From an uncultured bacterium (GTDB taxonomy: Bacteria; Cyanobacteriota; Vampirovibrionia; Gastranaerophilales; Gastranaerophilaceae), in assembly GCA_902765215.1 (NCBI GenBank), contig CACWZA010000013.1, forward strand, positions 1 through 53,120: 53,120 bases of DNA, given 5' to 3'. Within the stretch, counting starts at the first letter, position 1; each line of letters begins with the position of its first letter. The position numbers were made by a program, and so were the translations under genes. Of this stretch, positions 21,233-53,120 are shown piece by piece. Under the pieces are notes generated by a model, which saw nothing but the letters and a program-made list of their open reading frames with translations, did no database searches and was not told the origin of the DNA.

Positions 21233-21261
21233 TTGTACACATCTGCGAGATATATTATAAT
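21233..21261 (+). promoter_or_regulatory. Promoter of the giant surface-protein gene
   Basis: TTGTAC (21233-21238), an exact 17-base spacer and a perfect TATAAT (21256-21261), among the best promoters in the window. The leader, about 21268-21350, contains the palindrome TAGTAATTACTA and a small stem CTACAT/ATGTGG (21290-21306). The GGAG at 21340-21343 is spaced seven bases from ATG 21351; an ATG at 21345 is too close to it. Confidence 0.7.
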
Positions 21262-21350
21262 ATAGTTATAGTAATTACTACTGTTTAATCTACATGAATT
21301 ATGTGGGATGAGGCTACATAAGTAGAAAATAATTTAGTTGGAGAATGAGT

Positions 21351-24300
21351 ATGAGACGTGCAAACTTTATGTCTGCCGCATTAATGCTGTTGGCCCTTGC
21401 TGTGGGCTCATTTGGGTGTGCTGATGCGTGTAGTGTGGAAAATGGGAAGATTAATAATTCCGTAAAAGATGATAGTTCAATAGTAAAAAAAGTATCAAAC
21501 GATTTTTACTTAAAACGCAATGCCATAAAAGGCTTTGCTTCTGATTTATTTGTATATTCTCAAACTCAAACTCAAACAACCTCAAACTCATATTCTAACT
21601 TTAATTCAGCAGATTTAAACAGAACTCATTCTCAATTTATCCCAACTATTTCAATCAACAAACCGAACCTTCCTATGACGGAATGTTTGGAAAGAGTTGC
21701 TTATTCAACTCAAAAACCTGCTGTAAACGGCAGTAATGCTCCTCCTGATGTCGGGCGGGCAACAGGTTTCGCGGTCAATCTTGATGAGGCGGAAAAAACT
21801 TCTTCCGAACAAATGGCTGTGAAATATTTTAATTCCCAATTTATTACCAATAGTCCTGGAATCGAATTACTTGCGTACGACAATATTAATGATGCCGTAT
21901 CATCTACTGATGCAAATAAGGAATACGAGATGTCTGCAAATGAAACATTGGTAAGAAACTTCGGTAATCTTGCAGGGACAATATTGGAAATTATTGGTAA
22001 TAATTATGGTATCAGCAGTGGCGGATATACGGTATTGAATATCCCGTCAGGCAAAACCCTTATTGTTAACAGTGTTGGTTTAACGGCAGGAACTATTGAA
22101 GGCGGTAACTTCGCCGTTGTGAACAGCTGGAACGGATTTACCAGCACAGGTACAGGTGGTGCAATCTACAATAATGGCGGAACAGTAACGATAGAAGATT
22201 CTGTCTTTTCTTCTAATACTGCATCTACCGGCGGTGCGATTGCCAATACCAATTCAGGTACTATGACCATCAGCGGTTCTGTGTTTACCGGAAATACAGG
22301 TCAGTATGGTGCTTCTATCTGGAATAACGGGACACTGTCCGTAACCGATACAATTTTCTATAAAAACGAAATAACTGGTGACAGTAATAACGACCGTGCA
22401 GGCGGCGGTATTTTTAATGAAAGAAATCTGTTGCTTGTTGATAATTCAAAATTTATAGACAATATAGGTGTATATGGCGGTGCAATTTATAATAAGAGCG
22501 GTTGGACAATTACTTTAATAAAAGATTCGGAATTTTCAGGCAACACCGTATCAGGTACCAACTCAACCAACCACGGTGGCGCCGGTTTACATAACCGTGG
22601 AACTGTTACAACAATTCAGGATTCCGTATTTACTAACAATGCCACTAAAGGGAGCGGTGGTGCTATCTTTAATACGGGTACTATCGGGGCAATTATAGAT
22701 ACATCTTTCACCAATAACTGGGCAGTTACATACGGTGGTGCTATCTATAACGCAGGTACAATAACTATTGTTGCAAATAATGATGATGTTATTTTTGAAG
22801 GTAACAAACTCGGAACGGTTACTATTGATGCTGACGGTAATGCATCTATTTCTTCAACATATACATTAAACGATATTTATAATAACGGTGGCGGCGGGAT
22901 AAGATTAAATGCCAACACCGGAAAATCAATAGTATTTAACGGAACAATTACAGGTTCTAATAAGGATATTTATATTGGTAACACGACTGCAACCGTCACT
23001 CAGACAGGCGGTACATATCAATTTAATAATGCTGTTTCAGGAAACAGTTTCCTTTTATATAACAATCCTAATATCAAAATGGGCAGCTATACAGATCCTA
23101 ATACAAATGAAACATATTACGGTAAATTAACTTTAAACAATTTTTATACATACGATAATCATGGTGCTAATCTTGATACTCAAAATAATCATGCGGAAGC
23201 TCACAGTTTAGGAAGAGTTAATATTCAGGGTGATATTATTCTTTCTATTGATGCTGATTTGGGAGCAAGTACTCCTGCAATCGATAATTTCACCGCATCA
23301 AGTTTTTCATCTTCAAACGGTTCAAGGTTTGTTATAAACAGTGTAAAAATAGTTTCTGATGCTGTTCAGAAAGTTGTATCTTATGTTGTTGCAAATGATG
23401 TTTTGAGAGAATATTTCTCACTGGCAACTGAAGGTATGGAAATTGAAGGTCTAATACCGGGTAAAAGTTATATCCTTTCTTATTCAACAACAACGGGTAA
23501 ATTAACATTCACTTCAGAAAGTGTATTTACAACCTTGTATGATGCTATCCACAATCCGGATGAAGAACGAATTTATTCTATGGCTGAAGATGAAGATCTT
23601 ACTCAGGATTTGGGAACAATGGATGGTACAAATGCGTCTTTGGTAATTAGCGGAAATAATTATTCAATTAATGGTAACGCAAAACAAGGTATATATGTCG
23701 GGGCAGGTAATACTCTGACTATTAATGATGTTGGTTTGTATGAGGACGATATCGTAAGAGCATCATGGAATGGTATGGATACAGAAAATCTTACAGATCA
23801 TGATGCAAGTGTTGCGACAGTATACGGTACATTAAATGTCAATGATTCCGTATTTTATTATAACCAGACAACCTATAGTGCAGGTGTATTTGCTGTATAT
23901 GGTAACGGTTTTATCCAAAATTCAACCTTTATCAGAAACTCAGGTAATGTTGCAGGTGCTGTAATGGTTGCAGGTGCGAATGGAAAAGCATTAATAACAG
24001 ATTCATTATTTAAAAATAACAACGCAGAAAAAAGCGGTGCAGTAGCTGTTAATGATACGGGTGCGTATGCTAAGATTTCAGGTTCTGAAATTACGGGTAA
24101 CTATGCATCAACTAACGGTGGTGCTGTATATAACAAAGGGGAAGCTGTTATTCAGACTTCGGATGTAGAGTCAAATATAGGCGGTACTGCAGGTGCTGTT
24201 GATAACAGCGGAAAAGTTACACTGATAGATACGGATGTTAAAAATAACTCAACATCGGGTACATCAGGTGCAATTAGCAATAAAGGTACTGTTCAGGTTG

Positions 24301-27300
24301 TAGCTGATACAAAAGATGTTGTTTTCCAGGGTAACAAAGCAGGTGCAACAATTACCGATAACGGAGACGGTACATACTCTGCATCAGGCGGAATGGCTGT
24401 TGCCGTTACTTCTGACAGAAGTGTTGATACAAATGTAAATCTCAATGCTGCATCAGGCAAAACAATTATATTTAACGATGCCCTGAAAACTACTTCAGGT
24501 TCACATAATGCAAACCTGAACCTCAGCGGAAGCAGTAATACATATACTGATATGAATACTTCAGGAATTCAATCAACGACAACTATTAATAAAACGGGCG
24601 GAACTTATGTATTTAACAATGCTGTTGACGGTTATGCAATGAAGATGAACAACAATGCACAGGTGCAAATGGGTTCAACAACCGTTAATGGCGGAACATC
24701 TTATGGTACATTAAATCTGACTTCGTTTGAAAATGATGCAAACGGCGGTAAAATTGATACCCAAAATAACCATATAGAAACTCATAAAATGGGTACATCT
24801 TTCGTGTTAAACTCTGATTTGAGAGTCGGTGTTGATGCGGATTTGGTAAACGAAGTTGCAGATAAATTTGTTATGGACGACAATGTTCAGACAGTAAACT
24901 TCAACGGACACAGTATTATCATAAATGCGATAAAAGTTATTGTTGATGCTCCTAGTGAAGATCCTGTTTCGGTTACCGTTGCTGACGGAAACTTAAAATC
25001 AGCTTTCAAATTGACAACTGATGAAATGGAAGTTAATGGGGTTGCTGATGATATGAGTTATTTGGTAACCTATTCCGTATTAACAGGTAAATTAACTTTT
25101 AAAGGCAGTTTGAGTCCTTCAACAACCCTGCATGATGCGGTACAGGATACAACTGCTTTTCGTAACTATACAATGAGAAGAAGTGAAAATGTCACCGAGG
25201 ACTTGGGTACAATGGGTGGTGACGGTTCTATTCTCTCAATAAACGGCGGTGGATACAGTGTAAACGCTAACGGTTATAAAGGTATTACCGTAAAAAGCGG
25301 TCAAACCTTACACATTAGAAATGTGGGTACTTGGACAACTACAACTGACGATGAAGGCAGACTGACAGATGCTCAGATAACAAGATCATGGAATGGTTCA
25401 TCAATGGCAAATGGGGCTGTTTTACATGTAAACAGCGGTGGTGTTGCATCAGTTGAAAACAGTGCATTTACTAATAACAAAGCGCCGAGTGGTGAAGGTG
25501 GTGTAATCTACAATGAAGGTACATTGACCGAGTTATCAGGGGTATTCAAAAATAACTCAACTTCAGGCGGTGATGCGGGTGCTATCAGAAATACAGGTGT
25601 TATAGTAAACGGAACGGCTGATTTCATCGGCAATTATATCTATGGTGGCAGTGCTTCCAATGGTGGTGCTATATACAATACAGGTACAATAGTAAAATTG
25701 ACGGCTAATTTCATCGGGAACTACAACAGCCGTAATAATACTCAGGCAGGATACGGTGGCGCTTTCATATCATCAGGCGGTAATTCAAGAGTAGGTTCTC
25801 TTGTCGGTTATTTTAAAGGAAATTATGTTTCTACATTAGCTACTAATAATGTTGGCGGTGGTGCATTGAGAAGCAGCGGTGAAGCTAAAACCTATGAAGT
25901 TATTGCTGATTTTGATGAGAATTATGCAATAGGCGGTTCCGGCGGTGCTGTATATGCACAAGGTCAAAGCGGTCAAATCGTCTTGGTTGACAGTTCATTT
26001 ACAAACAATGCAGCAACAGTAAATGGTGGTGCAATATCCTCCCATGACCAACAGGTGCGTTTAATTGCAGATAAAAAGGACATATTGTTCCATAATAACA
26101 GAGTTGGTGCAATAACAAATAATGGTGACGGTACATTTACTGTTGATGAAGATGCAGAATATAACGATATTTATACAGGTAGAGATCTTTCGCTGAACGC
26201 GGCTGAAGGAAGAACTATTACTTTTGACGGTAAAGTTCAGGTTGGTTCTATGACTGTTCAGGGTACTCCTACTAAGGTTGTGCTTTCGTATGATAATGAA
26301 ACCGGTGCCGTAACTTCAACCAATGAAACTATTAACCAAATGGGCGGTACATACATATTTAACAATGTTGTTAATATATCAACATCATTCTTTAAAAATG
26401 ATGCACATATAAAACTTGGTTCTGTCGTTCAGGATAACGGTGATACAACTTATGGGGTATTGAATATATCAAGATTTGGTTCTCAGGGCGGACTTCATAT
26501 TGATTCTATGAATGACCATATAGATACTACTTCTCTGGGGGTAATTGGTCCGGGGTACGGTGAAGCGGTTAACGGAACCTTAAATGTTAGTATTGATGTG
26601 GACTTGGCGGGGACTACTACCGGTGGTGATGCTGCTGCCGATAAGATTGTTGCTACAAGTCTGGGCAGCTACTTTAGTTCTAGTTCAAATTTTGCGATTG
26701 AAGATTTGAATATAATGTCTAAACTCGCTTCATCTGAAAGATTGGAAATCAATGTATTTAATGATGTGTTAAAAGGTCGTGTAAAGAATGACTGGACTGT
26801 TAAAAAGATTGACGGTTTGATTGACGGCTCTGATTATTATGTTACATATCAGGCTGCAACAGGTAATTTGCTGTTTGGTGGTAATGATATATTTGGTTTG
26901 TATTTGAAGATTCATGAAACAGATGCCGTTCGTAATTATGAAATGTCTTATGATGAAGATGTTCCTGTTAATCTCGGAACAATGGAAGGTGAAAACTCAA
27001 CTCTGAATATTGACGGTAACGGTCATAGTATTACCGGCAACGGTTATAACGGTGTTACTGTTGAAAGCGGACAAACTTTGAATATAGATAATGTTGGTAC
27101 CTGGACAGAAGTTCTGGATGATAATAACAGAGTTGTCGGTGCAAATGTGACTAAATCGTGGAACGATTTTGTTTCAAATGAGGGTGGTGCAATATACATT
27201 AACAATGGTGCTACGGTCAATATTACAGATAGTGCGTTTGTAGGTAATACTGCATTGTCAAACCGAGGCGGAGCTATCTTTAATGCAGGCAGAATGGGTG

Positions 27301-45300: not shown

Positions 45301-48300
45301 ATAACACTATCGATAGCCAAAGTATGTCTGCAATGATGTATTTTGCGGGTGCATCAAGAACCAATAATGATGGCGAAAAGAGTTTCACTACTGATGTAAC
45401 AATCGGAGATAACATATCCTTTGTAAATAATAACATTAGCGGTATGGGCAGACTTGTCTACGGGGCAAATATTAATTCGTTAGAAATAGGTGATAATGCA
45501 CTCTTTGACGGTTATGGCGGCGGCGATACCGTCGGTGGTGCTATTTATATGTCAAACGGCAATACTTTCATATTAGGCGAAGATGCGCAGTTCTTATACA
45601 ATGAATCTATAAGTAATGAATCGAGTGGTGCTGCTGTTTATTTATCAATGTTAAATTCTGCTGTTATAGGTAGCGGGGCAACCTTCAGTTATAACCGTGC
45701 AATAAATAACGGTGGTGCAATGTATGTTAACAGTGTTGCCGATTTCCAGATTACTGATGCAACATTTGAAGAAAACTCAATAAAATTGTATGGTGGTGGT
45801 GCTATTAGCATAAGTGGTAGTACTGCTTCTATTTCCAGTTCAACCTTCAGAGGAAACCGTGTTGAAGATGATATCCTAAGTAGTGGCGGTGGTGCTATAC
45901 TTTTATATAATACAAATCTTACCCTTACAAATGATACATTTAGCGGTAACTCGGCATTCGGTCATGCAGGTGCTTTAAGTGTGAACGGCGGAACAGTAAA
46001 TATTTCAGGTTCAACCTTCAGTAATAACGAAGACCGTATGGATACAGAACTCGAAGTAACAGATACAAGTATGGGATCACAAGGCGGCGGTGCTATCTAT
46101 GTAACACCTGATTATAATTCGGATGCTAAGTTGTTAGTTTCTGATACGGAATTTGAATCAAATACATCAGGCACAAAAGGTGGTGCTATATCAATATATC
46201 CGTATACAAATACATCTGAAAATAATGCAAAAGTTGGTATTGAACATTCATCCTTTGCATTAAATACAGCAGGTACATCAGGTGGTGCAATACATCAGGC
46301 AGGTAACCATGTATTGACATTATCGGATGTAACATTTGAATCTAACCAGGCAGGCACATCAGGCGGTGCAATAATGCTTGATAAGTTAGAATATCAAACA
46401 GGCGGTGGCATCGGATATATGACTGCTAAAGGTTTAACCTTTGAGTCTAACTCTGCAACGCTTAACGGTGGTGCAATACATAACGAATTAAATGTATATA
46501 TTCAGGATTCATCATTCACTTCAAATGCCGCAGGTGGACTTGGTGGTGCTATATATAACGATACAACAGGTTATATAGTATTAATAGCTAATGAATCAAA
46601 TGTTATCTTCAGAGATAATACTGATTCTACAGGGGCAAATGATATCTATAACAAAGGTACATTATTGCTCAATGCTGCAGAAAACAAAAATATAGAATTT
46701 TACGGAAAAGTATCAGGTGATAACGGTTCAATCGTTGTTAACTCTGATGTTACTGTTCCTGTTCAATGGGATGAAGACGGTGATATAACAGAAGAACCGT
46801 CAGACTTTGTTGCTCCTAAATCAGGCGGATATGTATTCTACAACACTGTTTCAGGCAACACATTAAATATTAAAAACGGCGGTGCCGTAATTCTCGGAAA
46901 ATATACTGATATAAATGAAAATACAACTTACGGTTCATTAAATATTTCAGGTTTAACCAACGATGAAAACGGCGGTATATTAAACGCTCAAAATGATAAG
47001 ATGCAGGATCTCACAGTCGGTTCTATGGTATTAAATAGTACCTTAGACTTCCTGATTGATATAGATGTTGTGGAAGGCACTGCGGATAATATTACGGTCG
47101 CAGAAGGCTCATCAGGTACAGTTCGTCTGTCTGATATCAAATTTGTAACTCCGTTAGAGGATCAATCAGGAACAATAAGAATAATTTATAACTCTAACGA
47201 AAATACAATTCTTACTTTGGCTGATTCTGCAACAGGTTCTGTTATTGAGGAAGAAGAGAAACACGCTGATGTGTTTGTTCCTGTTGTACAATGGGATGAC
47301 ACATTTGACGCTGAATACACAATAACAAAAACTACAACATCTGAATTTGCAGTAACAGGTTCAGAAGAAGGATTACAAGACAGTATTACATATTCTACTG
47401 TTGTTGAACGCGGTGAAGAAAGACATAATCAGGTATCTATGGGCGATACACTTGTATTGTTAAATCAATTCGTAACCGATCAGGACAGAAGATTTATATT
47501 TGATACATCAGAAGATACTCACCTTCTCGGTGCTGATTTAGGCACAACAACAGAAGGTAAGATATCTATTGAAGGTGTTCGTGACGGCGACAATATGTCT
47601 ACTGTCAACATGGATGGAAAAGGCGGATTTAGTCTTGAAAATGAATCAACCTTAGTAATTGAAAATACGAAATTCAGAAACGCAGCTGAAGGTACAGTAA
47701 TAACAGTATCAAATGAAAATGCTGTAGTTAATATTGATAACTCAATGATTGACGGTGCAATTACAGGTACTGAAACATTTACCTTAACTACGGAAGGCAC
47801 AACAACCGTAACAGGTAATATTACAAAGGCAAACCTCACAAACGCAGGTGACTTGACTATAAAAGGTCTTACCGGAAGTATTACCAATAACGGTATGATT
47901 GTAAGCAGCGGCGCAATCACAGGTAATATTATTAACAACGGAGATTTTACAAACAGTGCTGCTGTTATCGGTGATATAACAAATAACGGTACAATAACAA
48001 ACAGCGGCGGAATTACTTCCGAATTATATACAGGTGGTGAAGGTTCAACTCTTAACAATAATGCCGCATTATCTGCGACAACAATAACAAACAGCGGTAC
48101 GATATTAAATGAAAGCACAATCACAGGTGCAATTACAAACAATGAATTTGGCAGCATTACATCACTTGCCAATGCAATTACAGGTAATATTCTCAATAAC
48201 GGTGATTTGTACTTAACAGGCGGTACAAACGCAAATGTAATTACAGGGTCAGGTACAACAACCTTCTCTAATACATCTTCTTCATCAGTTAATATTACCA

Positions 48301-51300
48301 ACAATGTTGTGAACGAAGGTGAATTTACAAATACTGCGGTAATTACGGGTAATGTATTAAATAATGTGACATTTACTAACGAAGGAACAATCGACGGTGA
48401 TGTTGAAAGCAGATTTGCCTTCACTAACGAGGGAACAATCACGGGCGAAGTTAAAAATATAGGTGAATTTACTAACAATTCAACTATATCAGGTGATGTT
48501 ACAAACGAAGGCATAATGACATCTGCAATTGAAAATATGACTGCAGGAATATCAAATGCCGGAGATTTGAACTTAACAGGTGCGTTAGCAAAAACAATAA
48601 CAGGTGACGGTACAACCTATATTAATAATACATTGACAATGAACAACGGTGCTCAGATTGACGGCACATTAGACTTAAATGATGGCGCACTAACCGTATC
48701 TGAAGGTTCTATTACGGAACATACTTTAGGCGGTATCGCAGGTACGGGTAATGTAGCTTTAGATATAGATTTCTCAGGTGAAGATGTCGTAACAGACAGA
48801 TTTAATGTATCATCAAGCGGTGATGGTGTTATGACAATTACATCCCTGAATTTAATCGCAGGTGATAAGAGAGATTTCACATATCAAATTATTACAGGCG
48901 CAGGTGAAAACTTCAAAATTGAAATTTCTGATGATGTAACATCACAATACAATTACCATCAGGATGATTCAAATGAATATGACGAAATCGTTCAGGCAGA
49001 AACAACCTGGGATCAGGTATACTATCATCACGATATTACAATTATCCACGATAAAACATTATCAATAGTTGATAACACAACTCTGTCATATCTCACAACA
49101 GATATTGATGTTGATGAAACAACTTCATTAGGTGACATTGTTGCTGTTGTAAGCAGAGCAAATATTGGTGACAGAAGACTTTATACAACTGATGCTTCTG
49201 CACTTCATACAGTAACAGAAGGTATTGGTACTGCTGCAGCAGGCAAACTCACAATTGAAGGTGCAGTCGGGGTTGATGAAAATGACAATCCTACAATATC
49301 AACAATTGACTTTGACGGTAACTCAGGTTTTGGACTTGAAAATGCTACCGAGTTAACCTTCAAGAATGTGAAAGTAACGGGTACTGATACTGTTGTTACC
49401 GTATCAAATACTGATGCATCAGTAACCGTTGATAATTCAGTTATTGATGGTGCAATTACAGGTACTGAAACCTATGATTTAACAACAAGCGGAACATCTG
49501 ATATAACAGGTGCTATAACAAATGCTAATTTGACAAACACAGGTGTATTAACAATAACAAGTCTTACAGGTACTGTAACAAATAGCGGAACACTTACAAA
49601 CAGCGATTTAATCACAGGTAATGTTACAAACAGCGGAACAATATATAACGAAAATGTAATTATGGGTGATATTATCAATAATGCAAGCGGCAGCATAACA
49701 TCATACGCAGAATCAATCATAGGTGATATCGCTAACGAAGGTGACCTCTACTTAACAGGCGGTACAAACTCAAACGCAATTACAGGCGGCGGTACAACAA
49801 CCTTCTCTGAAGATTCTGTTAACATAGCAGTTATTACAAATAATGTTGTAAACGAAGGCACATTGTTCAACTTCGCTTTAATCAGCGGTGATGTATCAAA
49901 TGCCGGTTATATGTCATCTCCAACAGAATATATGGCAGGTGCTGTATCTAACACTGGTGAATTATTCATAACAGGCGTTCTTGATAAGACAATCACCGGA
50001 GATGGCAGAACTTATTTAGATTCAGAATTAACTCTTAATTCCGGTGCTAACATTGAAGGAACCTTCGATCTGGGCAGCGGCGAATTGACTATATCTCAGG
50101 GTTCAATTACTCAACATTCAATCGGTTCAACTTTCGGTGATGCAAATGTTGCAATCGATATTGATTTCTCAGGCACAGATGTCGTGACAGACAGACTGAA
50201 TCTTACAAATGCTCCGGAGGGCGAAAGTAGTATAACAATTACTTCATTAAATATAATTGCAGGTGAAAAGAAAGACTTTGCTTACGAAGTCGTAACAAAT
50301 GCAGGTGATAATTTTGAAGTCAGATTAACTGATGAAATTAAAGAAGAATTTAATTTCTTTGTTGACGATTCATACTCTTATGATGAAGCATACGAAGCAA
50401 ATACCGAATGGACTCGTGTATATAATCATCACGATATCACCGATATTCACCAAAAAGATTTATCAATCGTAAATAAAACAACACTTACTTATGTAACAAC
50501 TGATATATATGAAGATGCAACAACTTCATTAGGTGACACTCTTGTTCTTGTAAATTCTGATACAACAAATCCGACAAGAAGATTCTATACTGCAGACCCT
50601 GCAGCAGAATACATTTTGTCAGAAAATCTCGGCGCTACTTCAGCAGGCAGTTTGACAATTGAAGGTGTTACAACAGAAGTAGGCGGTGTTGTAGTTAAAT
50701 CTAAACTTAATCTCAATAATAAATCAGGTTTTGAATTATCAAATGAAACGGCTCTCACTTTCAAAGATGTGAAAGTAGAAAATGCAGAAAGTGATTTGAT
50801 AACTGTTTCCGAACCTAATGCAACCGTATATGTTAATAACTCTATCCTTGACGGAACAATTACAGGTATAGAAGCATTTAACCTTATAACAAGCGGAACA
50901 TCTGAAATTACCGCTGCAATATCAAATGCAAATCTTTCTAACTCAGGTAATTTAACCTTAATGAGTTTAGACGGTTCATTGACAAACGACGGTGAAGTTA
51001 CAAATACAGGACTGATTTCAGGTGAAATTGTTAACAATACCGGTGCTGTTATAAATTCAGGTGCACACAACCTTTATGATGTAACAGGTGTTGTGAACAA
51101 AGGTATTATCAATCTTTCAAGCGGTAATCTGGAAAGCAACATTACCGATGTCGGTACAGTTAATATTGTCGGTGCTGTTACTAATACAAATTCAAAAACA
51201 ATTACTCAAAACTCAGTTACTGTTAGTGATTCAGCTTCATTGACAACAAATGCAAATGATATTACATCTGCTTCAGGTATAACAAATGACGGTAATTTAT

Positions 51301-53120
51301 ACTTAACAGGCGGCACAAACGCAAACGCAATCACAGGCGAAGGTACAACAACCTTCTCGAATGAATCTATTAACAATGCATCAATTACAAATACGGTAAT
51401 AAACCAGGGTGTATTAACCAACAGCGGTAATATAACAGGAAACTTTACAAACAGATTAAATTCAACAATGACAAACAGTGCCGTAATTTCAGGTAATGTA
51501 TTAAACTCAGGCAGAATGACTTCTTCAATAGACAATATGCTGGGTACTGTATCCAACACAGGTGACTTATACTTAACAGGTACATTAGCAAAAGAAATCA
51601 GCGGCAGCGGTGCTACATATGTTGACGGTACACTGACACTCGATAATGGAGCTTCAGTTGAAGGCAGATTCAACTTTAATGATGGCGGCGTAACAATATC
51701 TGCAGGTGAAATAACCTCTCATAGTATCGGTACTCTCTTAGGCGAAGGTAATATATCAATTGATATTAACTCAGGTGCTCAAACGGTTGATAATATTACT
51801 TCAGCAAATGTAGGCAGTGGAACCTTAACGATAGTCGCACTTAATGATATCGGTACTAAACCTGTTGCAGAAGGAACATATACATACGAAGTATTGTCTG
51901 TACAGGGTGTTACACTCGAAATCATTGACGAAATTACATCAAGTGACGAATGGTATGCAGAATATACTGTTACTCACAGTCCTAAAACCCCTGATGTAAT
52001 TCAGGAAAATACGGCTTGGACTCACATATATTATAATCGCTGGACAGATACTCATACAGGTAAGAGCCTCACAGTTGATGGCGGAAACCTTGTATTTGAT
52101 GTAATTAACCATACAACAGATGAAAAAGAAGTTCTTGGCGATACTCTCGCTTTGGTTAACAGAGCAGAAATTGACAGAAACTTTGTAACCGATACGGTTG
52201 AAACATATACATTATCAGATGATTTAGGTACAACTGCAGCAGGCAAATTCGCTATTAAGGGTGTAACAGAAGGCGATAATAAATCAACTGTTGACCTTAA
52301 CAGCAAAGACGGTTTTGCTCTTACAAATGCTACAGAACTGACCTTCAAAGATGTAAAAGTAACAGGTACTGATACTATTGTAACCGTATCAAATACAGAT
52401 GCATCCGTAATCGTTGATAATGCAATTGTTGACGGTGCAATCACAGGCACTCAAAATTATGACTTAACAACAAGCGGAACATCTGATATAACAGGTGCTA
52501 TAACAAATGCTGATTTGACAAATACTGGTGTATTAACAATAACAAGTCTGACAGGTAGTGTAACAAATAACGGAACACTTACAAACAGCGGTTTAATCAC
52601 AGGTGATGTTACAAACAGCGGTACATTAACAAATAACGGCGGAATTACTGCAACAACATATACAAATGGTGCAGATTCAACTCTTAATAATAAGGCTGCA
52701 TTATCCGCTACAACAATAACAAACAGCGGTGAAATTATAAATGAAAGCACAATCTCAGGTGCAATTACCAACAATGCGGGCGGTTCAATAACATCACTTG
52801 CAAATACAATAACAGGTAATATTGCAAACAATGGTAACTTGTACTTAACAGGCGGTACAAACGCAAACGCAATCACAGGCGGCGGCACAACAACCTTCAG
52901 TAATACAACAGGTAATACTGCATCAATCACAAATAATGTAGTAAACAACGGAACCTTAACAAACAGTGGTGCAATCACAGGTAATGTGACAAATACAAAC
53001 ACCTTAACAAGCAGCGGAACAATAACAGGTGACGTAACAAACAGCGGCACAATGACATCAAACGCACAAATCACGGGTGATGTAACAAATACAAATACCT
53101 TGAATAATAATGCTAAGATA
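21351..53120 (+). CDS. Giant exported repeat protein (beta-helix, PMP-like), at least 10,590 residues, 3' end outside window
   Basis: One reading frame from ATG 21351 reaches the last base of the window in phase; translation of sampled segments throughout found no stop. The N-terminus is a signal peptide (MRRANF, then MSAALMLLALAVGSFG), with an ADA cleavage site before Cys27; the Cys23 context (SFGC) is a poor lipobox. After a Ser/Thr/Asn-rich stretch (about 60-180) come three repeat classes: GGAIYN...FxxN as in polymorphic membrane proteins (22140-46600), IGDNAxF repeats (two blocks), and TNSGTITG repeats (47750 to end). These sit in large modules opened by an LGTMxG...GQTLxIxNVG header (15 seen). 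The composition, rich in Gly, Asn, Thr and Asp and very poor in Cys and Trp, predicts stacked right-handed beta-helices more than 1 MDa long. A surface adhesin or sheath is likely. A C-terminal barrel, sorting signal or secretion domain is not visible here. Confidence 0.93.
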   Translation, partial: MRRANFMSAALMLLALAVGSFGCADACSVENGKINNSVKDDSSIVKKVSNDFYLKRNAIKGFASDLFVYSQTQTQTTSNSYSNFNSADLNRTHSQFIPTISINKPNLPMTECLERVAYSTQKPAVNGSNAPPDVGRATGFAVNLDEAEKTSSEQMAVKYFNSQFITNSPGIELLAYDNINDAVSSTDANKEYEMSANETLVRNFGNLAGTILEIIGNNYGISSGGYTVLNIPSGKTLIVNSVGLTAGTIEGGNFAVVNSWNGFTSTGTGGAIYNNGGTVTIEDSVFSSNTASTGGAIANTNSGTMTISGSVFTGNTGQYGASIWNNGTLSVTDTIFYKNEITGDSNNDRAGGGIFNERNLLLVDNSKFIDNIGVYGGAIYNKSGWTITLIKDSEFSGNTVSGTNSTNHGGAGLHNRGTVTTIQDSVFTNNATKGSGGAIFNTGTIGAIIDTSFTNNWAVTYGGAIYNAGTITIVANNDDVIFEGNKLGTVTIDADGNASISSTYTLNDIYNNGGGGIRLNANTGKSIVFNGTITGSNKDIYIGNTTATVTQTGGTYQFNNAVSGNSFLLYNNPNIKMGSYTDPNTNETYYGKLTLNNFYTYDNHGANLDTQNNHAEAHSLGRVNIQGDIILSIDADLGASTPAIDNFTASSFSSSNGSRFVINSVKIVSDAVQKVVSYVVANDVLREYFSLATEGMEIEGLIPGKSYILSYSTTTGKLTFTSESVFTTLYDAIHNPDEERIYSMAEDEDLTQDLGTMDGTNASLVISGNNYSINGNAKQGIYVGAGNTLTINDVGLYEDDIVRASWNGMDTENLTDHDASVATVYGTLNVNDSVFYYNQTTYSAGVFAVYGNGFIQNSTFIRNSGNVAGAVMVAGANGKALITDSLFKNNNAEKSGAVAVNDTGAYAKISGSEITGNYASTNGGAVYNKGEAVIQTSDVESNIGGTAGAVDNSGKVTLIDTDVKNNSTSGTSGAISNKGTVQVVADTKDVVFQGNKAGATITDNGDGTYSASGGMAVAVTSDRSVDTNVNLNAASGKTIIFNDALKTTSGSHNANLNLSGSSNTYTDMNTSGIQSTTTINKTGGTYVFNNAVDGYAMKMNNNAQVQMGSTTVNGGTSYGTLNLTSFENDANGGKIDTQNNHIETHKMGTSFVLNSDLRVGVDADLVNEVADKFVMDDNVQTVNFNGHSIIINAIKVIVDAPSEDPVSVTVADGNLKSAFKLTTDEMEVNGVADDMSYLVTYSVLTGKLTFKGSLSPSTTLHDAVQDTTAFRNYTMRRSENVTEDLGTMGGDGSILSINGGGYSVNANGYKGITVKSGQTLHIRNVGTWTTTTDDEGRLTDAQITRSWNGSSMANGAVLHVNSGGVASVENSAFTNNKAPSGEGGVIYNEGTLTELSGVFKNNSTSGGDAGAIRNTGVIVNGTADFIGNYIYGGSASNGGAIYNTGTIVKLTANFIGNYNSRNNTQAGYGGAFISSGGNSRVGSLVGYFKGNYVSTLATNNVGGGALRSSGEAKTYEVIADFDENYAIGGSGGAVYAQGQSGQIVLVDSSFTNNAATVNGGAISSHDQQVRLIADKKDILFHNNRVGAITNNGDGTFTVDEDAEYNDIYTGRDLSLNAAEGRTITFDGKVQVGSMTVQGTPTKVVLSYDNETGAVTSTNETINQMGGTYIFNNVVNISTSFFKNDAHIKLGSVVQDNGDTTYGVLNISRFGSQGGLHIDSMNDHIDTTSLGVIGPGYGEAVNGTLNVSIDVDLAGTTTGGDAAADKIVATSLGSYFSSSSNFAIEDLNIMSKLASSERLEINVFNDVLKGRVKNDWTVKKIDGLIDGSDYYVTYQAATGNLLFGGNDIFGLYLKIHETDAVRNYEMSYDEDVPVNLGTMEGENSTLNIDGNGHSITGNGYNGVTVESGQTLNIDNVGTWTEVLDDNNRVVGANVTKSWNDFVSNEGGAIYINNGATVNITDSAFVGNTALSNRGGAIFNAGRMGVLSGVLKENTASKGYGGALYNATTGLIIDLSADFIGNYAINSNHHDGGAIYNQGKIYEVSGNFIGNYVYSTSDAHGGAISIGHASNTAIGKVTGLFKGNYAQSTGTGARGGALYMRDGGHYYEISADFEENYAIGGYGGAIEDDYGPSYIIDATFKNNAATVNGGAYWVGSNSYIIADQRDVVFTGNKVGTITNDGEGNFTITNYTYNDVAGNSTILLNAASGRRIRFDGSVVNPNNNAWLDINRTDSNHKRTVMTYRPETGTIGIDTDVLIDQVGGIYQFNNNVEKFAMHLYTGSHIKLGEAEQTDGTTSHGKLMLRSFQTEGGDTPVTIDSQNNYADSHQLGSDVILRSNVNVLIDADLAGATTDDSAPGADQFSVTTFHRDNQNYRKFVIKDISIVSKAATDDMLEVNVADELLKGYFQLEGDIKAVDGVVDGSAYYVTYQADTGNLLFGGQSVYGLYFAVHTPDVETYTLSADSENYVNLGTLEGENRSLVIDGAGHDVNGHQHSGITIQEGQSLTIKNVGMTEEGEVVEGAKGWNSFGTNSIFVNEGILDIQNVILSENIIVENDVYGGLIKNTGIVNNITGQILNNSMGGATSQTAYPSYARGGTLIENNGGLIKNIDVNMSGNWVSYNNMDSAAGLIWNRTAASNILSISGNFSGNYVMSHDRDESGIISNLGKIGSITGVFSNNGAFDSRNNHTGYGAAIRNYNGAYIYRITADFIGNYVFSTVNTNQGRGGAIDQNNGNMYFIDSTFTDNMAGNSGGAISINNGSMYMISENRDTILTNNMVGNIVRDNETGAVSMSGAIKYIDLYFGDNGWLYLNADEDRAVVFDGSIVTNKTNNNPIIINRDNIALYEMTYNEDTQTINVETTGNAPIGGDYVFNSPVGKIIIGNYGGNIILGSKEQEDGTTTYGSFDIGRYATYQAVGSIDTRNNHIDTNSFGNVGQDNNWRMDFDTILKLDVDLGENPASDVFNGTAGGYIRNNSKFIIKEINLITEALTDDLYSLTVTSNSLKNYFRTEGEDESPVITTRTEDGTRYIATYQAGSNDGKLLVGKDNLYNEIHLPIAERTYTMEADEEVTKNLGTMEGDNSTLTVEGNGYDVNGNNHGGVTVQAGQTMNVRNVGMDEDGNITGEGFHGFYNSRVFINNGTLDLQNVVFSGNTTNNANIGVSNNAGGIVTNYTGAFINHDINITQSTNAGMIYGAGASDAKLYNMVLDIKDNNFISTGTLYAVIVAWSGAPIGNIDIDVENNKIFSGGMNRGAIIFSCQQTTQNISGTFKNNVMKGTSQGGLINGYQNYIRNITADFEDNIAIGVTGSVLTHTSGGEERFVDSTFKNNWASNSAAIYTEGGLRIYAVDKNVIFTGNRIGEITDNGDGTYTIADDADYIDVYSTNYMNLVAAEGKSITFDGKVTGSAGLNLNMSNEVRYVWTGELNSDSVAVQNGGDYIFNNLVSGKALSLYNNANVKLGSKEQSNGTTTYGHLDLVSLTNDTNGGVISAQNGHIDENNLGAVTLKSNLILKFDVDLAGVTSGGTPTIDKYNISSVTGSYKFIMGGFGVVSDAETDDPVIINVANDDLKSYFALTSATGSVMSGLAEDVYYLITYTESDGNLKFRNIGNCLYVAVHRTDDVREYDMSGFGEGVDEELFMDLGPMEGTNATLTIKGAGHGVKGTVEGVSYAGITVSNGNTLNMENVGEYTMKDADGNDTDNINEAVDVEVSNSWNGMRTTTGGSVATYNSGTHGKIENSVFANNASTNAPGGAIVDHAGITIDKSVFYGNYGGGLGSHNVPGGAIYVTGNSAGTVITNSIFKNNISDNIGGAIYITGNTQISNSLFIGNKSYYPGGAIFATTSLYVVENSRFFNNDAETNYGGAIYTASGGTIRGSEFEGNTVSGSGGAVYSSGGTTIYDSVFKDNLASSSGGAIYNSGTTNIIAENGNVEFSGNKSGVTINRDSNGNVTSTSGGTLNDVYNSGSLYLKAKKGVTEPEEEGGEGEEYTRSITFGGSIENGSVYVGDSDYMGDVNLNKVKNASVYVNGGNANIINVGSLDESGNPVTTFSDGTNTRIYVYTNGTLNTENSVFANQTLSSSSSSYGGTNVFVSGGTANLGGSYINNVLTTTGNSYRLGGGVVYVSSGTANLSGDFRANKIYNYNVQSGSSNYKGGGVVYNLGTLNTTADATFTGNYVYSYVTNSGSNRLYGGVIVNYGRAENILGTFTGNYIKNFQTQDYIYGYGGVIYNVSGATIDKIDATFTGNYVHSQVQATNHDVHAYGGTIANQGTIGTISGTFTDGYVLSNMNSTSRSNYENAYGGAIYNTGRIDSITAATFDGNYAEARYAYGGTIYNSGTIGSITDTEIKNSYTLSKNNSYQYGGALYNVGTITDLSAKFTNNYISTTGTQYAYVYGGALYNSSTISNLASDFIGNYVISNSSGYGNYVYGGAVYISGNVSGISGKYKNNYISTIGNYAYGGALYYGNSNPLNISNSEFTGNYIYNNSSTYYKANYGGAINTQNTASVNISDSEFNNNYLKNMNGYAYGGAIGINSGNPITTISNSSFEGNYASSYSSQYGGAIYQYGGTLNLINTDFKKNYTAYKNSTGYDDNNNINGYGGAVYVTSGSNHTISGGTFEGNKAYYGGAIYGQFTSITDVVFKGNYSRYYGGGMYVWGNGAITGTFEDNITTNYGGAIYVSSGARQISGTFTGNYASNGGAIYNSVSGYNSSVAGTFTNNTGNYGGAVYFAGSTYLVDVTGTYKENSAVYNGGAIITSYPYLTIHDAVFEENSANQGAALYYSTSTTTATNIRDTQFKDNTATTAGGAIYVNSGAVATTGVTFEGNTAKEGGAVYNKSTFTATDTTFTGNTAEDAGGAIYNSGTTNLNAVNSDVVFETATDTVYNKGKLNLSASEGKQIVFNADVTGDGGTINVKQGDVALNTEISGNTINLNNGNIKMSTSSNIADDATLVANGGSIDFINDELQTTNVGNLKLSKNLLWKLDVNLDEETGDIIKATSIVPHENSILVHTLNVLAETDSDEVSVHIADDSVKEYVSVSAGLTINSTSDRVAKYISYDSGLGNIVLAYNFTLKEAVADTLSQRVYVMSEDEMVDSSLGNMGGDGSTLMVSGSGYSIIADGDDIEGVNVAAGQTLEITGVNGENGGFTGFGTAERQGGAVKNAGTLKINDSKMSANTAKEGGAIYNTGTANLTDTDFINNTAEEKGGAIYNAQDAVTNISAVTKDVTFSGNTADSQSNAIYNEGTVNLAADKNRNIILNDSVDGNGGTINVNNDSKGVVQVNSTISNNNVNLNSGTLNLKGDIDNTSTLYAKGGTLSLVDGEVASTPKEVANVNMQTDLLLGLDIDLEARESDKFTTSNPTYNDNKILISTFNIIADATSSTTRVNVADGDMKSHFGLADDIYIIAEGATTGYMLNYDEATGDVVIGSGMDLVHVTRATTPVERNYALAGDENIKEQLDLLPEGEDKTSIGTIGGEGAILTIQGGGYSIDGSDAKSLGFVVNSGQTLNIRNVGSATINYNDDGDISGATPEAGMHHFNSTQSESTAIKNNGGNVNIINSVFYNNAGNGIGGGVVHSTGGNVYAQGIFVANSGTAFQTKDTNLTIGDNSIFNSNTPYSSAAGITASGTITYDSATGVISNVTSNIVIGDNLSFVSNSGGGGGSLLNAGNYTYSNSTPINSLIIGDNAYIANNTGNGTIQVGGMVTRDSSNQIKDVSTTVDIGNNARLVNNQGGIWVGYAKRFSIGDDFLYQGNVNAGNYAYGNYSYNSTTNENTAILDFSLGDRARIINNNGTYGQIISTYNVKSVTIGDDLYFANNATSGPPGNAIYSYNNYSTNYSEGNIATHTDISIGNNAQFVDNTGDLFYIYYVKSFEIGNNALFQGNTGNNQAILMFYGAYIGTTISGNPVVIGGTDVTIGDGAKFIGNITSSGQAIVDAYYTNSITFGDDIEFINNTAPQSILYVYGNTYTGNNQLKSMNTLTMGDNVKFIGNTQLAGGSNGIIYTSYIKEAIIGDNLEFRNNTTGGYSIYSGYNSSYRIADDYLSAGKFTIGDNAKFVGNKATTMGSGSSGLIYIGGNKGMFIGENALFEDNESNSQLIYASGYSSQYGQYDYYTLGDLTIGDNAKFINNSTVCELILIYSSKLHLGKNTLIEGNTSTATTSTPYSYGLIRTSSSSSDMTIEEGTVIQNNTVSINNPSAGSLGGILRVENGSFNINATVKNNTYKTSSVSSGFGGGALYINYGAHGSFTGLFENNKFEREIAQGSTVSGYVGGGAVYISGTSRLETDADFIKNSVVENISGNYSGGGAMYVTNSSTVTITGGTYRENLFKPTSSYSGGGAIYASNSAVLTISDAVFDSNETKSAYGGAIYLDFSATATISDTEFTSNKTVTGGYGGAIYTERSSNLTVSDSSFEDNKSGSGGAIYIGSSSGTTTLTDNTFTNNTATNNGGAIYNSKSGTTVTGGSFEENTGNYGGAIYTSASMTINSEFTDNSGNYGGAVYATSGITVAGGSFSENTAKYGGALDLNYSSASTISNGVTFENNRASEQGGAIYNNGNYVNLYGVSLSNNTAKQGGAIYTLTSSSQSTIISDNGSTYTSNTARDSGGAIYSANGILSINNSATFTSNTAGNYGGAIYINNLISTTSMMNLNGDSFTSNRAKHGGALFIRDYNIPSTGTYMISMGSTNFTDNIATIAGGAIYLDKGKMMLGGNTFSGNTANNGGAIYNNDYIEVLGGVTFTGNSATGNGGAVYNTANGQILFKGSATFATETDTVYNLGEMTVNMTNPSDAVTLNADVAGNGGTINIDNGVVQVNAEIADNTVNLNNGTLKFGENGNMSDTSSIIAEGGDVSLINSTMQETSLGNVTLNADMEVGIDINLYDEVGDILKAAADITDITDTHKIIIKHINVTNETMANKSEIYIADEYMRKVIVLSDDLDINITPPAIAFDDTTGCLIIGGDDYKLVDAIADEAVQRRYTMYANEVVDGDLGTMQGEDATLVVLGRNKSILADSAGIKGVTVQEGQTLEIKNVNGADGGIKGFGDSTDSEGGFINNEGTVNITNSKFTENTANQGGAIYNKGTVTLVDTEFTNNTATDNGGAIYTAEGATTTFISGDTTISANTAGGNSNFAYNEGRMNINTDGTINLQDSITGNDGVIYINNAEVSDRNTGNVNLTSTISGNNIHLDGGTLTVGSVGVIDNATSTLTAGGGTLSLIDNTINTKEISNIVLNSDLLLGIDIDLLGDVDKLTSSNIVFNDNQILISVISVAVNSDTDDETIIPFADATIKDHVDLYDNLTIEIGPSAHEQSFAIEYRKSIGAIVINPNVNLVGITRRDNPKTRSYMIVSDEIIKDELTDLDPSEDKTSIGEIAGGEGAKLTIYGSGHSIDGTDANALGFKVAATQTLNLRNIGAATVTTDEDGNITGVTPTAGVHGFNSGQTLSTAILNNGGTVNVTNSVFYNNSGNGEGGAAIYSISGTVYAQGIFKNNNGPYGGAIYAKDVTTLTIGEGSIFEANNGYAGGGAFYALGTVDYDTTTGIINSVTTDIVVENNVAMINNTGTYSDGVHIRAANVNSLSIGDNFYMYNNNTQSSQIYITGTTTTDSEDNIVDRTTTFEIGKNARFIDNIVSTSTIAVIVGDNIKSITIGDDLYIDNARNSYGNTYASFLRGNYVNTIAIGENAQILNSYGASVYGNYVNTITVGEDLLMKNTNGVGIYAVNVDTVNIGDNATFTNNTVSGGSGIGVFASNTRQIIFGNYATFSNNTNDAGGGIGVYSYSGSTETELIKFGNYATFEKGHATGGGGTVVYATAPAHSSADTGEITSNLNIEFGKNLTISGNYSASSAGAFNLSNINSLTIDNGLKFTNNYAQRAGFMNYSGSTIVKTSTGEINALGDIRIGNNALFKGNYGGTSMGTIVYASGFNSFSVGDNLVVESNITAPSTMQQMFSFQGSTSVLTETGNYASTGDIVIGNNARFSDNIVQGILYTSYVKSVTIGDDVTFENNTIDSQSMSAMMYFAGASRTNNDGEKSFTTDVTIGDNISFVNNNISGMGRLVYGANINSLEIGDNALFDGYGGGDTVGGAIYMSNGNTFILGEDAQFLYNESISNESSGAAVYLSMLNSAVIGSGATFSYNRAINNGGAMYVNSVADFQITDATFEENSIKLYGGGAISISGSTASISSSTFRGNRVEDDILSSGGGAILLYNTNLTLTNDTFSGNSAFGHAGALSVNGGTVNISGSTFSNNEDRMDTELEVTDTSMGSQGGGAIYVTPDYNSDAKLLVSDTEFESNTSGTKGGAISIYPYTNTSENNAKVGIEHSSFALNTAGTSGGAIHQAGNHVLTLSDVTFESNQAGTSGGAIMLDKLEYQTGGGIGYMTAKGLTFESNSATLNGGAIHNELNVYIQDSSFTSNAAGGLGGAIYNDTTGYIVLIANESNVIFRDNTDSTGANDIYNKGTLLLNAAENKNIEFYGKVSGDNGSIVVNSDVTVPVQWDEDGDITEEPSDFVAPKSGGYVFYNTVSGNTLNIKNGGAVILGKYTDINENTTYGSLNISGLTNDENGGILNAQNDKMQDLTVGSMVLNSTLDFLIDIDVVEGTADNITVAEGSSGTVRLSDIKFVTPLEDQSGTIRIIYNSNENTILTLADSATGSVIEEEEKHADVFVPVVQWDDTFDAEYTITKTTTSEFAVTGSEEGLQDSITYSTVVERGEERHNQVSMGDTLVLLNQFVTDQDRRFIFDTSEDTHLLGADLGTTTEGKISIEGVRDGDNMSTVNMDGKGGFSLENESTLVIENTKFRNAAEGTVITVSNENAVVNIDNSMIDGAITGTETFTLTTEGTTTVTGNITKANLTNAGDLTIKGLTGSITNNGMIVSSGAITGNIINNGDFTNSAAVIGDITNNGTITNSGGITSELYTGGEGSTLNNNAALSATTITNSGTILNESTITGAITNNEFGSITSLANAITGNILNNGDLYLTGGTNANVITGSGTTTFSNTSSSSVNITNNVVNEGEFTNTAVITGNVLNNVTFTNEGTIDGDVESRFAFTNEGTITGEVKNIGEFTNNSTISGDVTNEGIMTSAIENMTAGISNAGDLNLTGALAKTITGDGTTYINNTLTMNNGAQIDGTLDLNDGALTVSEGSITEHTLGGIAGTGNVALDIDFSGEDVVTDRFNVSSSGDGVMTITSLNLIAGDKRDFTYQIITGAGENFKIEISDDVTSQYNYHQDDSNEYDEIVQAETTWDQVYYHHDITIIHDKTLSIVDNTTLSYLTTDIDVDETTSLGDIVAVVSRANIGDRRLYTTDASALHTVTEGIGTAAAGKLTIEGAVGVDENDNPTISTIDFDGNSGFGLENATELTFKNVKVTGTDTVVTVSNTDASVTVDNSVIDGAITGTETYDLTTSGTSDITGAITNANLTNTGVLTITSLTGTVTNSGTLTNSDLITGNVTNSGTIYNENVIMGDIINNASGSITSYAESIIGDIANEGDLYLTGGTNSNAITGGGTTTFSEDSVNIAVITNNVVNEGTLFNFALISGDVSNAGYMSSPTEYMAGAVSNTGELFITGVLDKTITGDGRTYLDSELTLNSGANIEGTFDLGSGELTISQGSITQHSIGSTFGDANVAIDIDFSGTDVVTDRLNLTNAPEGESSITITSLNIIAGEKKDFAYEVVTNAGDNFEVRLTDEIKEEFNFFVDDSYSYDEAYEANTEWTRVYNHHDITDIHQKDLSIVNKTTLTYVTTDIYEDATTSLGDTLVLVNSDTTNPTRRFYTADPAAEYILSENLGATSAGSLTIEGVTTEVGGVVVKSKLNLNNKSGFELSNETALTFKDVKVENAESDLITVSEPNATVYVNNSILDGTITGIEAFNLITSGTSEITAAISNANLSNSGNLTLMSLDGSLTNDGEVTNTGLISGEIVNNTGAVINSGAHNLYDVTGVVNKGIINLSSGNLESNITDVGTVNIVGAVTNTNSKTITQNSVTVSDSASLTTNANDITSASGITNDGNLYLTGGTNANAITGEGTTTFSNESINNASITNTVINQGVLTNSGNITGNFTNRLNSTMTNSAVISGNVLNSGRMTSSIDNMLGTVSNTGDLYLTGTLAKEISGSGATYVDGTLTLDNGASVEGRFNFNDGGVTISAGEITSHSIGTLLGEGNISIDINSGAQTVDNITSANVGSGTLTIVALNDIGTKPVAEGTYTYEVLSVQGVTLEIIDEITSSDEWYAEYTVTHSPKTPDVIQENTAWTHIYYNRWTDTHTGKSLTVDGGNLVFDVINHTTDEKEVLGDTLALVNRAEIDRNFVTDTVETYTLSDDLGTTAAGKFAIKGVTEGDNKSTVDLNSKDGFALTNATELTFKDVKVTGTDTIVTVSNTDASVIVDNAIVDGAITGTQNYDLTTSGTSDITGAITNADLTNTGVLTITSLTGSVTNNGTLTNSGLITGDVTNSGTLTNNGGITATTYTNGADSTLNNKAALSATTITNSGEIINESTISGAITNNAGGSITSLANTITGNIANNGNLYLTGGTNANAITGGGTTTFSNTTGNTASITNNVVNNGTLTNSGAITGNVTNTNTLTSSGTITGDVTNSGTMTSNAQITGDVTNTNTLNNNAKI
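33500..35960 (+). repeat. Densest class A run, Tyr-rich FTGNYV variants
   Basis: About 2.4 kb of uninterrupted class A units inside the expanded module that opens at 32253. Many carry the variant ending FTGNYV/FxGNYI with Tyr-rich linkers (YAYGGAIYN, YVYGGALYN), unlike the NTA endings elsewhere. This expansion accounts for much of the module's 4.35 kb, against about 1.7 kb for the earlier ones. Confidence 0.8.
36606..42266 (+). repeat. Two-module block, copy 1
   Basis: A short module (header 36606) plus a long module (header 37722) with a class B block and then class A repeats. The short module ends with a distinctive linker including EDKTSIGTIGGEGA, matched at the equivalent place in copy 2 by EDKTSIGEIAGGEGA. 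Confidence 0.75.
38116..39780 (+). repeat. Class B repeats, copy 1: IGDNAxFxxN
   Basis: Units of about 25-40 residues built on IGDN (or IGEN, LGKN) with A/L-x-F and a following NN or GN, for example TIGDNAKFVGNKA, MFIGENALFEDNE and LHLGKNTLIEGN. GGAIYN is mostly absent, so this is a distinct rung type within the same module. It ends near the class A run at 40000. Confidence 0.8.
42267..47537 (+). repeat. Two-module block, copy 2
   Basis: The same order of elements as copy 1, with the headers offset by 5661 bp (36606 to 42267) and 5676 bp (37722 to 43398). The last part (about 46650-47530) departs from copy 1 and instead resembles the tails of the early modules (SGGYVFYNTVSGN, TTYGSLNISG, LNAQNDKM), suggesting recombination between module types. 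Confidence 0.7.
43810..45700 (+). repeat. Class B repeats, copy 2: IGDNAxFxxN
   Basis: A second block of the same unit (LTIGEGSIFEANN, EIGKNARFIDN, RIGNNALFKGN, VIGSGATFSYN) lying about 5.7 kb after the first block and in the same order relative to its module headers, followed again by class A repeats. It is diverged, so the duplication is not recent. Confidence 0.8.
49341..49640 (+). repeat. 300-bp near-identical repeat, copy 1
   Basis: It aligns without gaps to 52326-52625 at a fixed offset of 2985 bp and differs by scattered, often third-position changes. It encodes the end of a header (LTFKNVKVTGTD), a VTVSNTDASVTVDN segment and the following class C rungs. Confidence 0.8.
52326..52625 (+). 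repeat. 300-bp near-identical repeat, copy 2
   Basis: Partner of 49341-49640. The offset spans two modules, so the intervening module (header 50628) is the more diverged one. Either a two-module tandem duplication or gene conversion explains it. Confidence 0.8.

What the first reader, a model, noticed from the sequence alone, without database searches (positions are those of the whole stretch)
21351..53120. A single exported protein of more than 10,590 residues, still open at the window edge
Starting from ATG 21351 the frame stays in phase to base 53120, and the translated samples at about 22, 25, 28, 30, 33, 35, 40, 43, 47.5, 49 and 53 kb are all open and in the same repeat style. It has a signal peptide, a ribosome binding site and a strong promoter, so it is an expressed exported protein, not a chance frame. 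Proteins of this size are among the largest known bacterial polypeptides. The class A repeat is known from chlamydial Pmp proteins, but those are roughly ten times smaller. The whole looks like a surface fibre or adhesin.
Basis: partly seen in the sequence, partly recalled or inferred. Interest (0 to 1): 0.88.

Follow-up and report, generated by a model that had tools for sequence, protein, structure and literature searches.

The report
Giant gut-bacterium autotransporter surface fibre
An uncultured gut relative of cyanobacteria carries a gene for one exported protein of at least 10,590 amino acids, most likely a self-secreting surface fibre built from about fifteen linked beta-helix blocks; it is one of a whole set of such giants in its genus, slightly larger than the largest autotransporter I found reported.

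Summary
The open frame is real: ATG 21351 to base 53120, 10,590 codons, no stop, no N. It ends only because the contig (C13 of G000) ends. Mis-assembly is unlikely: no exact internal repeat reaches 50 nt, while the assembler's word length appears to be 99. Sister species hold frames of 9,618 to 14,637 residues. The genome belongs to Candidatus Gastranaerophilales.

The protein is a signal peptide, then about 15 beta-helix blocks with chlamydial-Pmp-type GGA[ILV]/FxxN coils, joined by a ~330-residue module (14 copies plus one N-terminal half). In paralogues half of that module sits just before the barrel. The missing C-terminus is probably on contig C42: it overlaps the window's last 9 bases in frame and carries the same modules, then a helix plus 12-stranded barrel whose model matches type Va autotransporters (AIDA-I, EspP, BrkA). 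Joined: 11,795 residues. Relatives of 4,100 to 6,000 residues with this design are complete inside contigs.

Best reading: a giant type Va-like autotransporter, a cell-anchored fibre probably for adhesion. BigE (10,429 residues) is a precedent, so this is a new variant of a known kind; the lineage, the joint and the number of giants are new. Expression and adhesion are unproven.

The parts
21234..21261 (+). promoter-like hexamers TGTACA-16-TATAAT
   Evidence: consensus scan, 10 of 12; not evidence of function
21340..21343 (+). Shine-Dalgarno-like GGAG, 7 nt before ATG 21351
   Evidence: sequence
21351..53120 (+). giant open frame, 10,590 codons, 3' open at the contig end
21351..21428 (+). Sec signal peptide, residues 1-26, cleavage proposed after ADA
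   Evidence: read by eye from the translation; no predictor was run
21855..22079 (+). N-terminal half-joint (start cap of the first beta-helix block), residues 169-243
   Evidence: joint HMM, model positions 241-328, E 2.9e-7; 9.6e-7 with an HMM from other genomes only
22080..22862 (+). first beta-helix block with GGA[ILV]/FxxN coils, residues 244-504
   Evidence: Pmp core motifs from residue 294; PF02415 hit at 22698-22751
22863..23741 (+). joint module 1, residues 505-797
   Evidence: E 3.6e-47
24420..25334 (+). joint module 2, residues 1024-1328
   Evidence: E 3.1e-49
26148..27104 (+). joint module 3, residues 1600-1918
   Evidence: E 1.7e-46
27915..28877 (+). joint module 4
   Evidence: E 5e-40
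29727..30683 (+). joint module 5
   Evidence: E 3e-39
31458..32396 (+). joint module 6
   Evidence: E 1.1e-50
32397..35897 (+). long beta-helix block, residues 3683-4849, rich in GGAIY/FxxN coils
   Evidence: motif counts; PF02415 hits
35898..36737 (+). joint module 7
   Evidence: E 8.1e-42
37023..37856 (+). joint module 8
   Evidence: E 2.3e-43
37848..39800 (+). variant coil region with [IF]G[DENK][ND] repeats (approximate limits)
   Evidence: motif histogram
41598..42398 (+). joint module 9
   Evidence: E 3.8e-37
42696..43535 (+). joint module 10
   Evidence: E 8.7e-36
46629..47666 (+). joint module 11
   Evidence: E 1.7e-51
48423..49373 (+). joint module 12
   Evidence: E 1.9e-36
49929..50774 (+). 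joint module 13
   Evidence: E 7.9e-34
51444..52358 (+). joint module 14
   Evidence: E 2.4e-37
47700..53120 (+). 3' region of about 520-residue tandem units (43-47% identical) with ITGxVTNSG-type coils
   Evidence: self-comparison; motif histogram
23463..25064 (+). one representative unit (cap, beta-helix, joint), 534 residues, modelled
   Evidence: AlphaFold2 pLDDT 85.2, pTM 0.87; best VIA match the autotransporter passenger Vag8, Z 24.7, 342 residues, rmsd 3.1
53112..53120 (+). GCTAAGATA, the last 9 bases, identical to the first 9 bases of contig C42 and in frame

Best explanation
The frame encodes the signal peptide and nearly all of the passenger of a giant type Va-like autotransporter of a Candidatus Gastranaerophilales bacterium. 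It would be exported by Sec. A C-terminal helix plus 12-stranded barrel, probably on contig C42 (total about 11,795 residues), would be inserted by BAM and thread the passenger out C-terminus first. Outside, the chain folds into about 15 right-handed beta-helix blocks separated by a repeated joint, giving a cell-anchored fibre of the order of 0.2 micrometre. Its most likely role is adhesion to gut particles, mucus or other microbes. The joint carries the same domain that lies just before the barrel, where other autotransporters have an autochaperone, so I propose it lets each block fold on its own as it emerges. Shown: the frame, the modules, the family barrel, the predicted folds, an Omp85 in the genome. 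Inferred: the C13-C42 join, secretion, the folding role of the joint, adhesion.
For: Frame. Pmp core motif GGA[ILV]-x(14,18)-FxxN: 30 copies against 0.06 in shuffles. PF02415 hits over cut-off. Joint: 14 full plus one N-terminal half, also found with an HMM made from other genomes only, 0 hits in shuffled sequence. Beta-helix model: pTM 0.87, Z 24.7 to Vag8. C42: in-frame 9-nt overlap, the only overlap of 8 nt or more for this contig end among all 94 ends; random pairs of positions in such genes reach 9-11 nt about 8 times in 100,000. C42 is the only contig start that opens into a frame of this family, and an HMM made from C13 joints alone finds its joint at 7.3e-51. Barrel: helix plus 12 strands, pTM 0.78, top 19 Foldseek hits all autotransporter domains, best E 8.3e-15. 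Barrel relatives score PF03797 over cut-off. Same design complete inside contigs: 6,011, 4,297 and 4,146 residues. Omp85 present.
Against: The barrel is not on the same contig; the join rests on 9 bases plus module similarity. Four passenger contigs of this genome lack an end (C7, C8, C11, C13). The C42 barrel itself has no Pfam hit. The pre-barrel domain matches no autochaperone family by sequence. No transcript, peptide or electron-microscopy evidence. The related giant on C9 loses its frame just before the barrel, within 600 nt of a contig end, so degeneration of such genes cannot be excluded.
Confidence: 0.77

Rival explanations
1. The protein is real and exported, but C42 is not its C-terminus and it leaves by another route, or is a soluble or periplasmic giant.
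For: No barrel on the contig. Assembly gaps leave the end unknown, and four passengers of this genome (C7, C8, C11, C13) break off inside their repeats.
Against: All other family members whose 3' end is visible go into the same linker and barrel. C42 is the only matching open contig start.
Confidence: 0.12
2. The long frame is an assembly artefact that joins several shorter genes.
For: Repetitive protein in a fragmented metagenome-type assembly.
Against: No exact repeat of 50 nt or more in the gene, and 20 pairs of contig ends share exactly 99 nt, pointing to a word length of 99. Frames of 9,618 to 14,637 residues occur in other species' assemblies. No internal signal peptide or barrel was seen on reading the translation.
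Confidence: 0.03
3. A decaying or phase-varied gene that makes no full-length product; the long frame survives by recombination among paralogues.
For: C9 shifts frame before its barrel; some barrel relatives in other genera contain stops; shared barrel sequences at many contig ends suggest exchange.
Against: 10,590 codons without a stop and steady codon-position G+C need continued selection. C9's break lies at a contig end, where assembly errors are common.
Confidence: 0.08
4. A giant autotransporter whose main task is not adhesion: a protective coat, a predation or contact device, or a carbohydrate-active surface.
For: A giant protein of an Omnitrophota species was proposed to form a coat or act in predation (PMC10066038); the beta-helix model also matches epimerases, lyases and phage tailspikes.
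Against: No catalytic family found in the parts scanned; the matches to enzymes are at the level of fold only.
Confidence: 0.2

Closest known systems
BigE, autotransporter of 10,429 residues (Celik et al. 2012, PMC3419190)
   Same: Single-chain giant autotransporter made large by replicating a passenger segment (eight-fold), C-terminal barrel
   Different: Its relatives are betaproteobacterial, BrkA-like passenger, EstA-type barrel. Here about 15 Pmp-type blocks with a different joint, a different barrel lineage, and several giants per genome. No sequence comparison with BigE was made
Chlamydial polymorphic membrane proteins (Pmp; PF02415, PMP_M PF07548)
   Same: GGA[ILV]/FxxN beta-helix coils, signal peptide, C-terminal barrel; Pmp has an autochaperone-like middle domain before the barrel (PMC11166332)
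   Different: Pmps are far smaller (PmpD 1,530 residues). PMP_M was not found here, and the pre-barrel-type domain is repeated at every joint
Type Va autotransporter barrels AIDA-I, EspP, BrkA, EstA, NalP
   Same: Helix plus 12-stranded barrel by model; Foldseek E to 8.3e-15
   Different: 11-19% identity; a barrel family of its own, several members with charged C-terminal tails after the last strand
Giant proteins of Omnitrophota (39,678 residues; PMC10066038)
   Same: Giant surface-type proteins, possibly for cell contact
   Different: Described with many transmembrane helices and few known domains; no comparison by sequence was made

Membership tests
Type Va autotransporter | N-terminal Sec signal peptide | tested here: met
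   by inspection, MRRANFMSAALMLLALAVGSFGCADA; no predictor available
Type Va autotransporter | right-handed beta-helical passenger | tested here: met
   one 534-residue unit modelled, pTM 0.87; VIA Z 24.7 to Vag8, other beta-helices 19-24; Foldseek alone weak, best E 1.5e-3
Type Va autotransporter | alpha-helical linker and 12-stranded C-terminal barrel | tested here: met
   for C42 and its family: helix 6-39 plus 12 strands, Foldseek top 19 autotransporters
Type Va autotransporter | that barrel is on the same polypeptide as this passenger | tested here: inconclusive
   C13 ends before it; 9-nt in-frame overlap with C42 and shared modules; complete single frames in relatives
Type Va autotransporter | PF03797 signature | tested here: inconclusive
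   C42 has no hit and the genome search none; three barrel relatives score 43-52 bits, cut-off 26
Type Va autotransporter | autochaperone domain before the barrel | tested here: inconclusive
   a conserved domain is at that place but no Pfam or PDB sequence match; not modelled alone
Type Va autotransporter | BAM (Omp85) in the same genome | tested here: met
   three PF01103 hits, best 7.6e-45
Chlamydial Pmp | PF02415 repeat / GGA[ILV]-FxxN core | tested here: met
Chlamydial Pmp | PMP_M middle domain PF07548 | tested here: not met
   no hit in C42, window 21351-30000 or the pre-barrel and joint alignment A5; the rest of the passenger was not scanned
Chlamydial Pmp | chlamydial origin | tested here: not met
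   nearest named barrel relatives are Candidatus Gastranaerophilales
BigE group of giant autotransporters | sequence relationship to the BigE passenger and barrel | not tested
   no BigE sequence was fetched; size and replication compared from PMC3419190 only

The most novel reading that the evidence does not exclude
A genus of gut Gastranaerophilales devotes 5% or more of its genome to several autotransporters of 10,000 to more than 14,637 residues, larger than any autotransporter I found reported. Each beta-helix block is closed by its own autochaperone-like joint, so a million-dalton passenger is secreted and folded block by block, a modular solution to passenger length.
Probability: 0.4. 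Interest if true: 0.75.

Novelty: new variant of a known kind. Interest (0 to 1): 0.6.

Why it matters
It puts giant type V secretion in a non-photosynthetic cyanobacterial sister lineage common in animal guts, where my full-text searches found no relevant autotransporter report. The repeated joint makes a concrete question testable: how far can an autotransporter passenger be lengthened, and does it need a folding nucleus per block? It also helps explain why these genomes fragment: similar barrels and giant repeats sit at contig ends, so the largest surface proteins are likely to be cut or lost in short-read assemblies.

Tried and rejected
A 26,690-residue frame on C11 is false: 72,000 bases there are withheld and read N; only about 2,660 residues are visible. 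Gene order does not test the C13-C42 join: in sister species the gshB and TPR-gene neighbourhoods carry no giant gene. Pfam, NCBIfam and PDB sequence searches did not name the C42 barrel or the joint. PF03797 finds nothing in the genome, although relatives do match it. The first genome-contig scan with the N-terminus found no relatives. No Rfam family or tRNA in the window. Papers naming Gastranaerophilales or Melainabacteria with autotransporters or Pmps: none relevant in the held library.

Full report
OBSERVATION. The frame is as described. It is open from 21333 to 53120; the better start is ATG 21351, with GGAG 7 nt upstream. It holds 10,590 codons without a stop and the window has no N. 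By base composition the chance of such an open run is about 10^-352, and codon-position G+C is even along the gene. The mass of the visible part is 1.109 MDa, pI 4.3. The window is the whole of contig C13 of assembly G000 (2.15 Mb, 47 contigs, 97% complete), so the gene is cut by the contig end.

ASSEMBLY. The longest exact repeat inside the gene is between 40 and 49 nt, with none of 50 or more. Across the genome, 20 pairs of contig ends share exactly 99 nt, which suggests an assembler word of 99; repeats of under 50 nt should not have misled it inside this contig. The right end of C13 shares no such 99-nt end with any contig, so it is a dead end rather than a repeat branch. Coverage could not be checked.

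ORIGIN. The nearest named relatives of the family's barrel are Candidatus Gastranaerophilales / Melainabacteria, many from rumen and other gut samples. Seven same-genus genomes were available. Frames of the same kind occur there: G006 C180 14,637 residues (open at both contig ends), G006 C131 12,294, G002 C23 12,543, G002 C128 9,618 (contig contains 100 N). In the own genome, C9 holds a 12,803-codon frame and C7 a 5,255-codon one; C26, C30 and C34 run off their contigs inside the linker or barrel. Adding the visible frames of C7, C9, C11, C13, C26, C30, C34 and C42 gives about 117 kb, 5.4% of the genome (my sum; a lower bound, since 72 kb of C11 is withheld and C8 is left out).

ANATOMY. After a Sec-type signal peptide (by eye), the passenger carries 77 GGA[ILV], 143 FxxN and 30 copies of the Pmp core GGA[ILV]-x(14,18)-FxxN described in PMC11166332; shuffles give 0.06 cores on average. 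PF02415 hits lie over the curated cut-off. A joint module of about 330 residues occurs 14 times in full and once as an N-terminal second half. An HMM built only from other genomes finds the same 15 places, and shuffled sequence gives none. In paralogues and C42 the first half of the module lies directly before the barrel linker. Thus the module is an end part of one block plus a start cap of the next. The last 1,800 residues are roughly 520-residue tandem units, 43-47% identical.

FOLD. A 534-residue unit (23463-25064) modelled with 20 relatives gives pLDDT 85.2 and pTM 0.87, almost all beta. Foldseek alone is weak (Ag43 1.5e-3, pertactin 3.1e-2), but VIA aligns it to the autotransporter passenger Vag8 at Z 24.7 over 342 residues, rmsd 3.1, with many other right-handed beta-helices at 19-24. 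This supports the fold, not a function.

THE MISSING END. Contig C42 (8,014 bases) opens at base 1 in a frame of the same style and runs 1,208 codons to a stop: passenger tail, one full joint, one terminal half-joint, linker, barrel and a charged tail. Its first nine bases equal the last nine of C13 and keep the frame. Among all 94 contig ends no other end overlaps the C13 end by 8 nt or more, and no other contig start opens into a frame of this family. Random pairs of positions in such genes overlap by 9-11 nt about 8 times in 100,000. An HMM of C13 joints alone finds the C42 joint at 7.3e-51 but not the joints of C9 or C26. Four passenger contigs (C7, C8, C11, C13) need an end, and C7 and C11 end in a shared 99-nt repeat, so I judge C13-C42 likely (about 85%) but not proven. 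Joined: 10,590 + 1,208 - 3 = 11,795 residues.

BARREL. Twenty relatives (A1) give a model with a long helix and 12 strands, pLDDT 82.5, pTM 0.78. The first 19 Foldseek hits are all type Va autotransporter domains, led by AIDA-I at 8.3e-15. C42 itself has no Pfam hit, but three barrel relatives of the same order reach PF03797 at 43-52 bits, cut-off 26. The genome has Omp85.

COMPLETE RELATIVES. In other genera the same design is complete within a contig: G195 C13 6,011 residues in a 165-kb contig, G114 C8 4,297, G051 C1 4,146, with joints and barrel. The joint is almost confined to one family of the order: 101 of 239 family genomes, and in a class-wide sample 96 of 97 positive genomes belong to that family. 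Among the matches listed in those two surveys, frames over 9,000 residues appear only in the window's own genus.

MECHANISM. Sec export, BAM insertion of the barrel and C-to-N threading follow from established knowledge of type Va secretion. The joint contains the domain that in this genus precedes the barrel, the place of the autochaperone in other autotransporters (PMC5767081) and of the autochaperone-like middle domain in Pmp (PMC11166332). From this I infer a folding aid per block. Sequence searches did not confirm it, so it stays a hypothesis. With about 22 residues per coil and 4.8 angstrom rise, both taken from general knowledge, the fibre would be about 0.2 micrometre. Adhesion is inferred from the class of protein.

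NOVELTY. BigE at 10,429 residues, with an eight-fold replicated passenger, was called the largest known autotransporter in 2012 (PMC3419190). A review of autotransporters reports, in its most diverse adhesin group, passengers of 280 to 3,333 residues (PMC9289746). Larger bacterial proteins of other kinds exist (39,678 residues, PMC10066038). The present protein is therefore a new variant of a known kind: another lineage, another joint, and many giants per genome.

Noticed in passing
L037:9104-12103 (-) (G000:C7:29104-32103): A type II Cas9 (PADLOC PDLC01256, E 1.5e-50) in this Gastranaerophilales genome.
   Followed up: partly
window 10250-14530 (-): A 1,426-residue protein with no Pfam, NCBIfam or PADLOC hit but an amylase-like stretch AGNPTIYAGDELGMTGYE, possibly a divergent GH13 enzyme.
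   Followed up: partly
L045:3150-3627 and L105, L111, L123, L124: Long charged or repetitive tails after the last barrel strand (about 155 residues in C42; QSVNKPAPVQQVKP repeats in G004), which would lie in the periplasm; unusual for autotransporters.
   Followed up: no
L029/L030 (G000:C9 61184-61775): The C9 giant (about 12,770 residues from its Met) loses frame between the pre-barrel domain and the linker, within 600 nt of the contig end; assembly error or decay.
   Followed up: partly
G000 contig ends C3 L, C6 R, C9 L, C11 R, C26 L, C31 R, C37 L: Barrel C-termini sit at many contig ends: similar barrels of paralogues fragment the genome and may exchange by recombination.
   Followed up: partly
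window 37848-39800 and 43848-45530: Blocks in which the GGA/FxxN coils give way to [IF]G[DENK][ND] coils, a second coil class within one protein.
   Followed up: no
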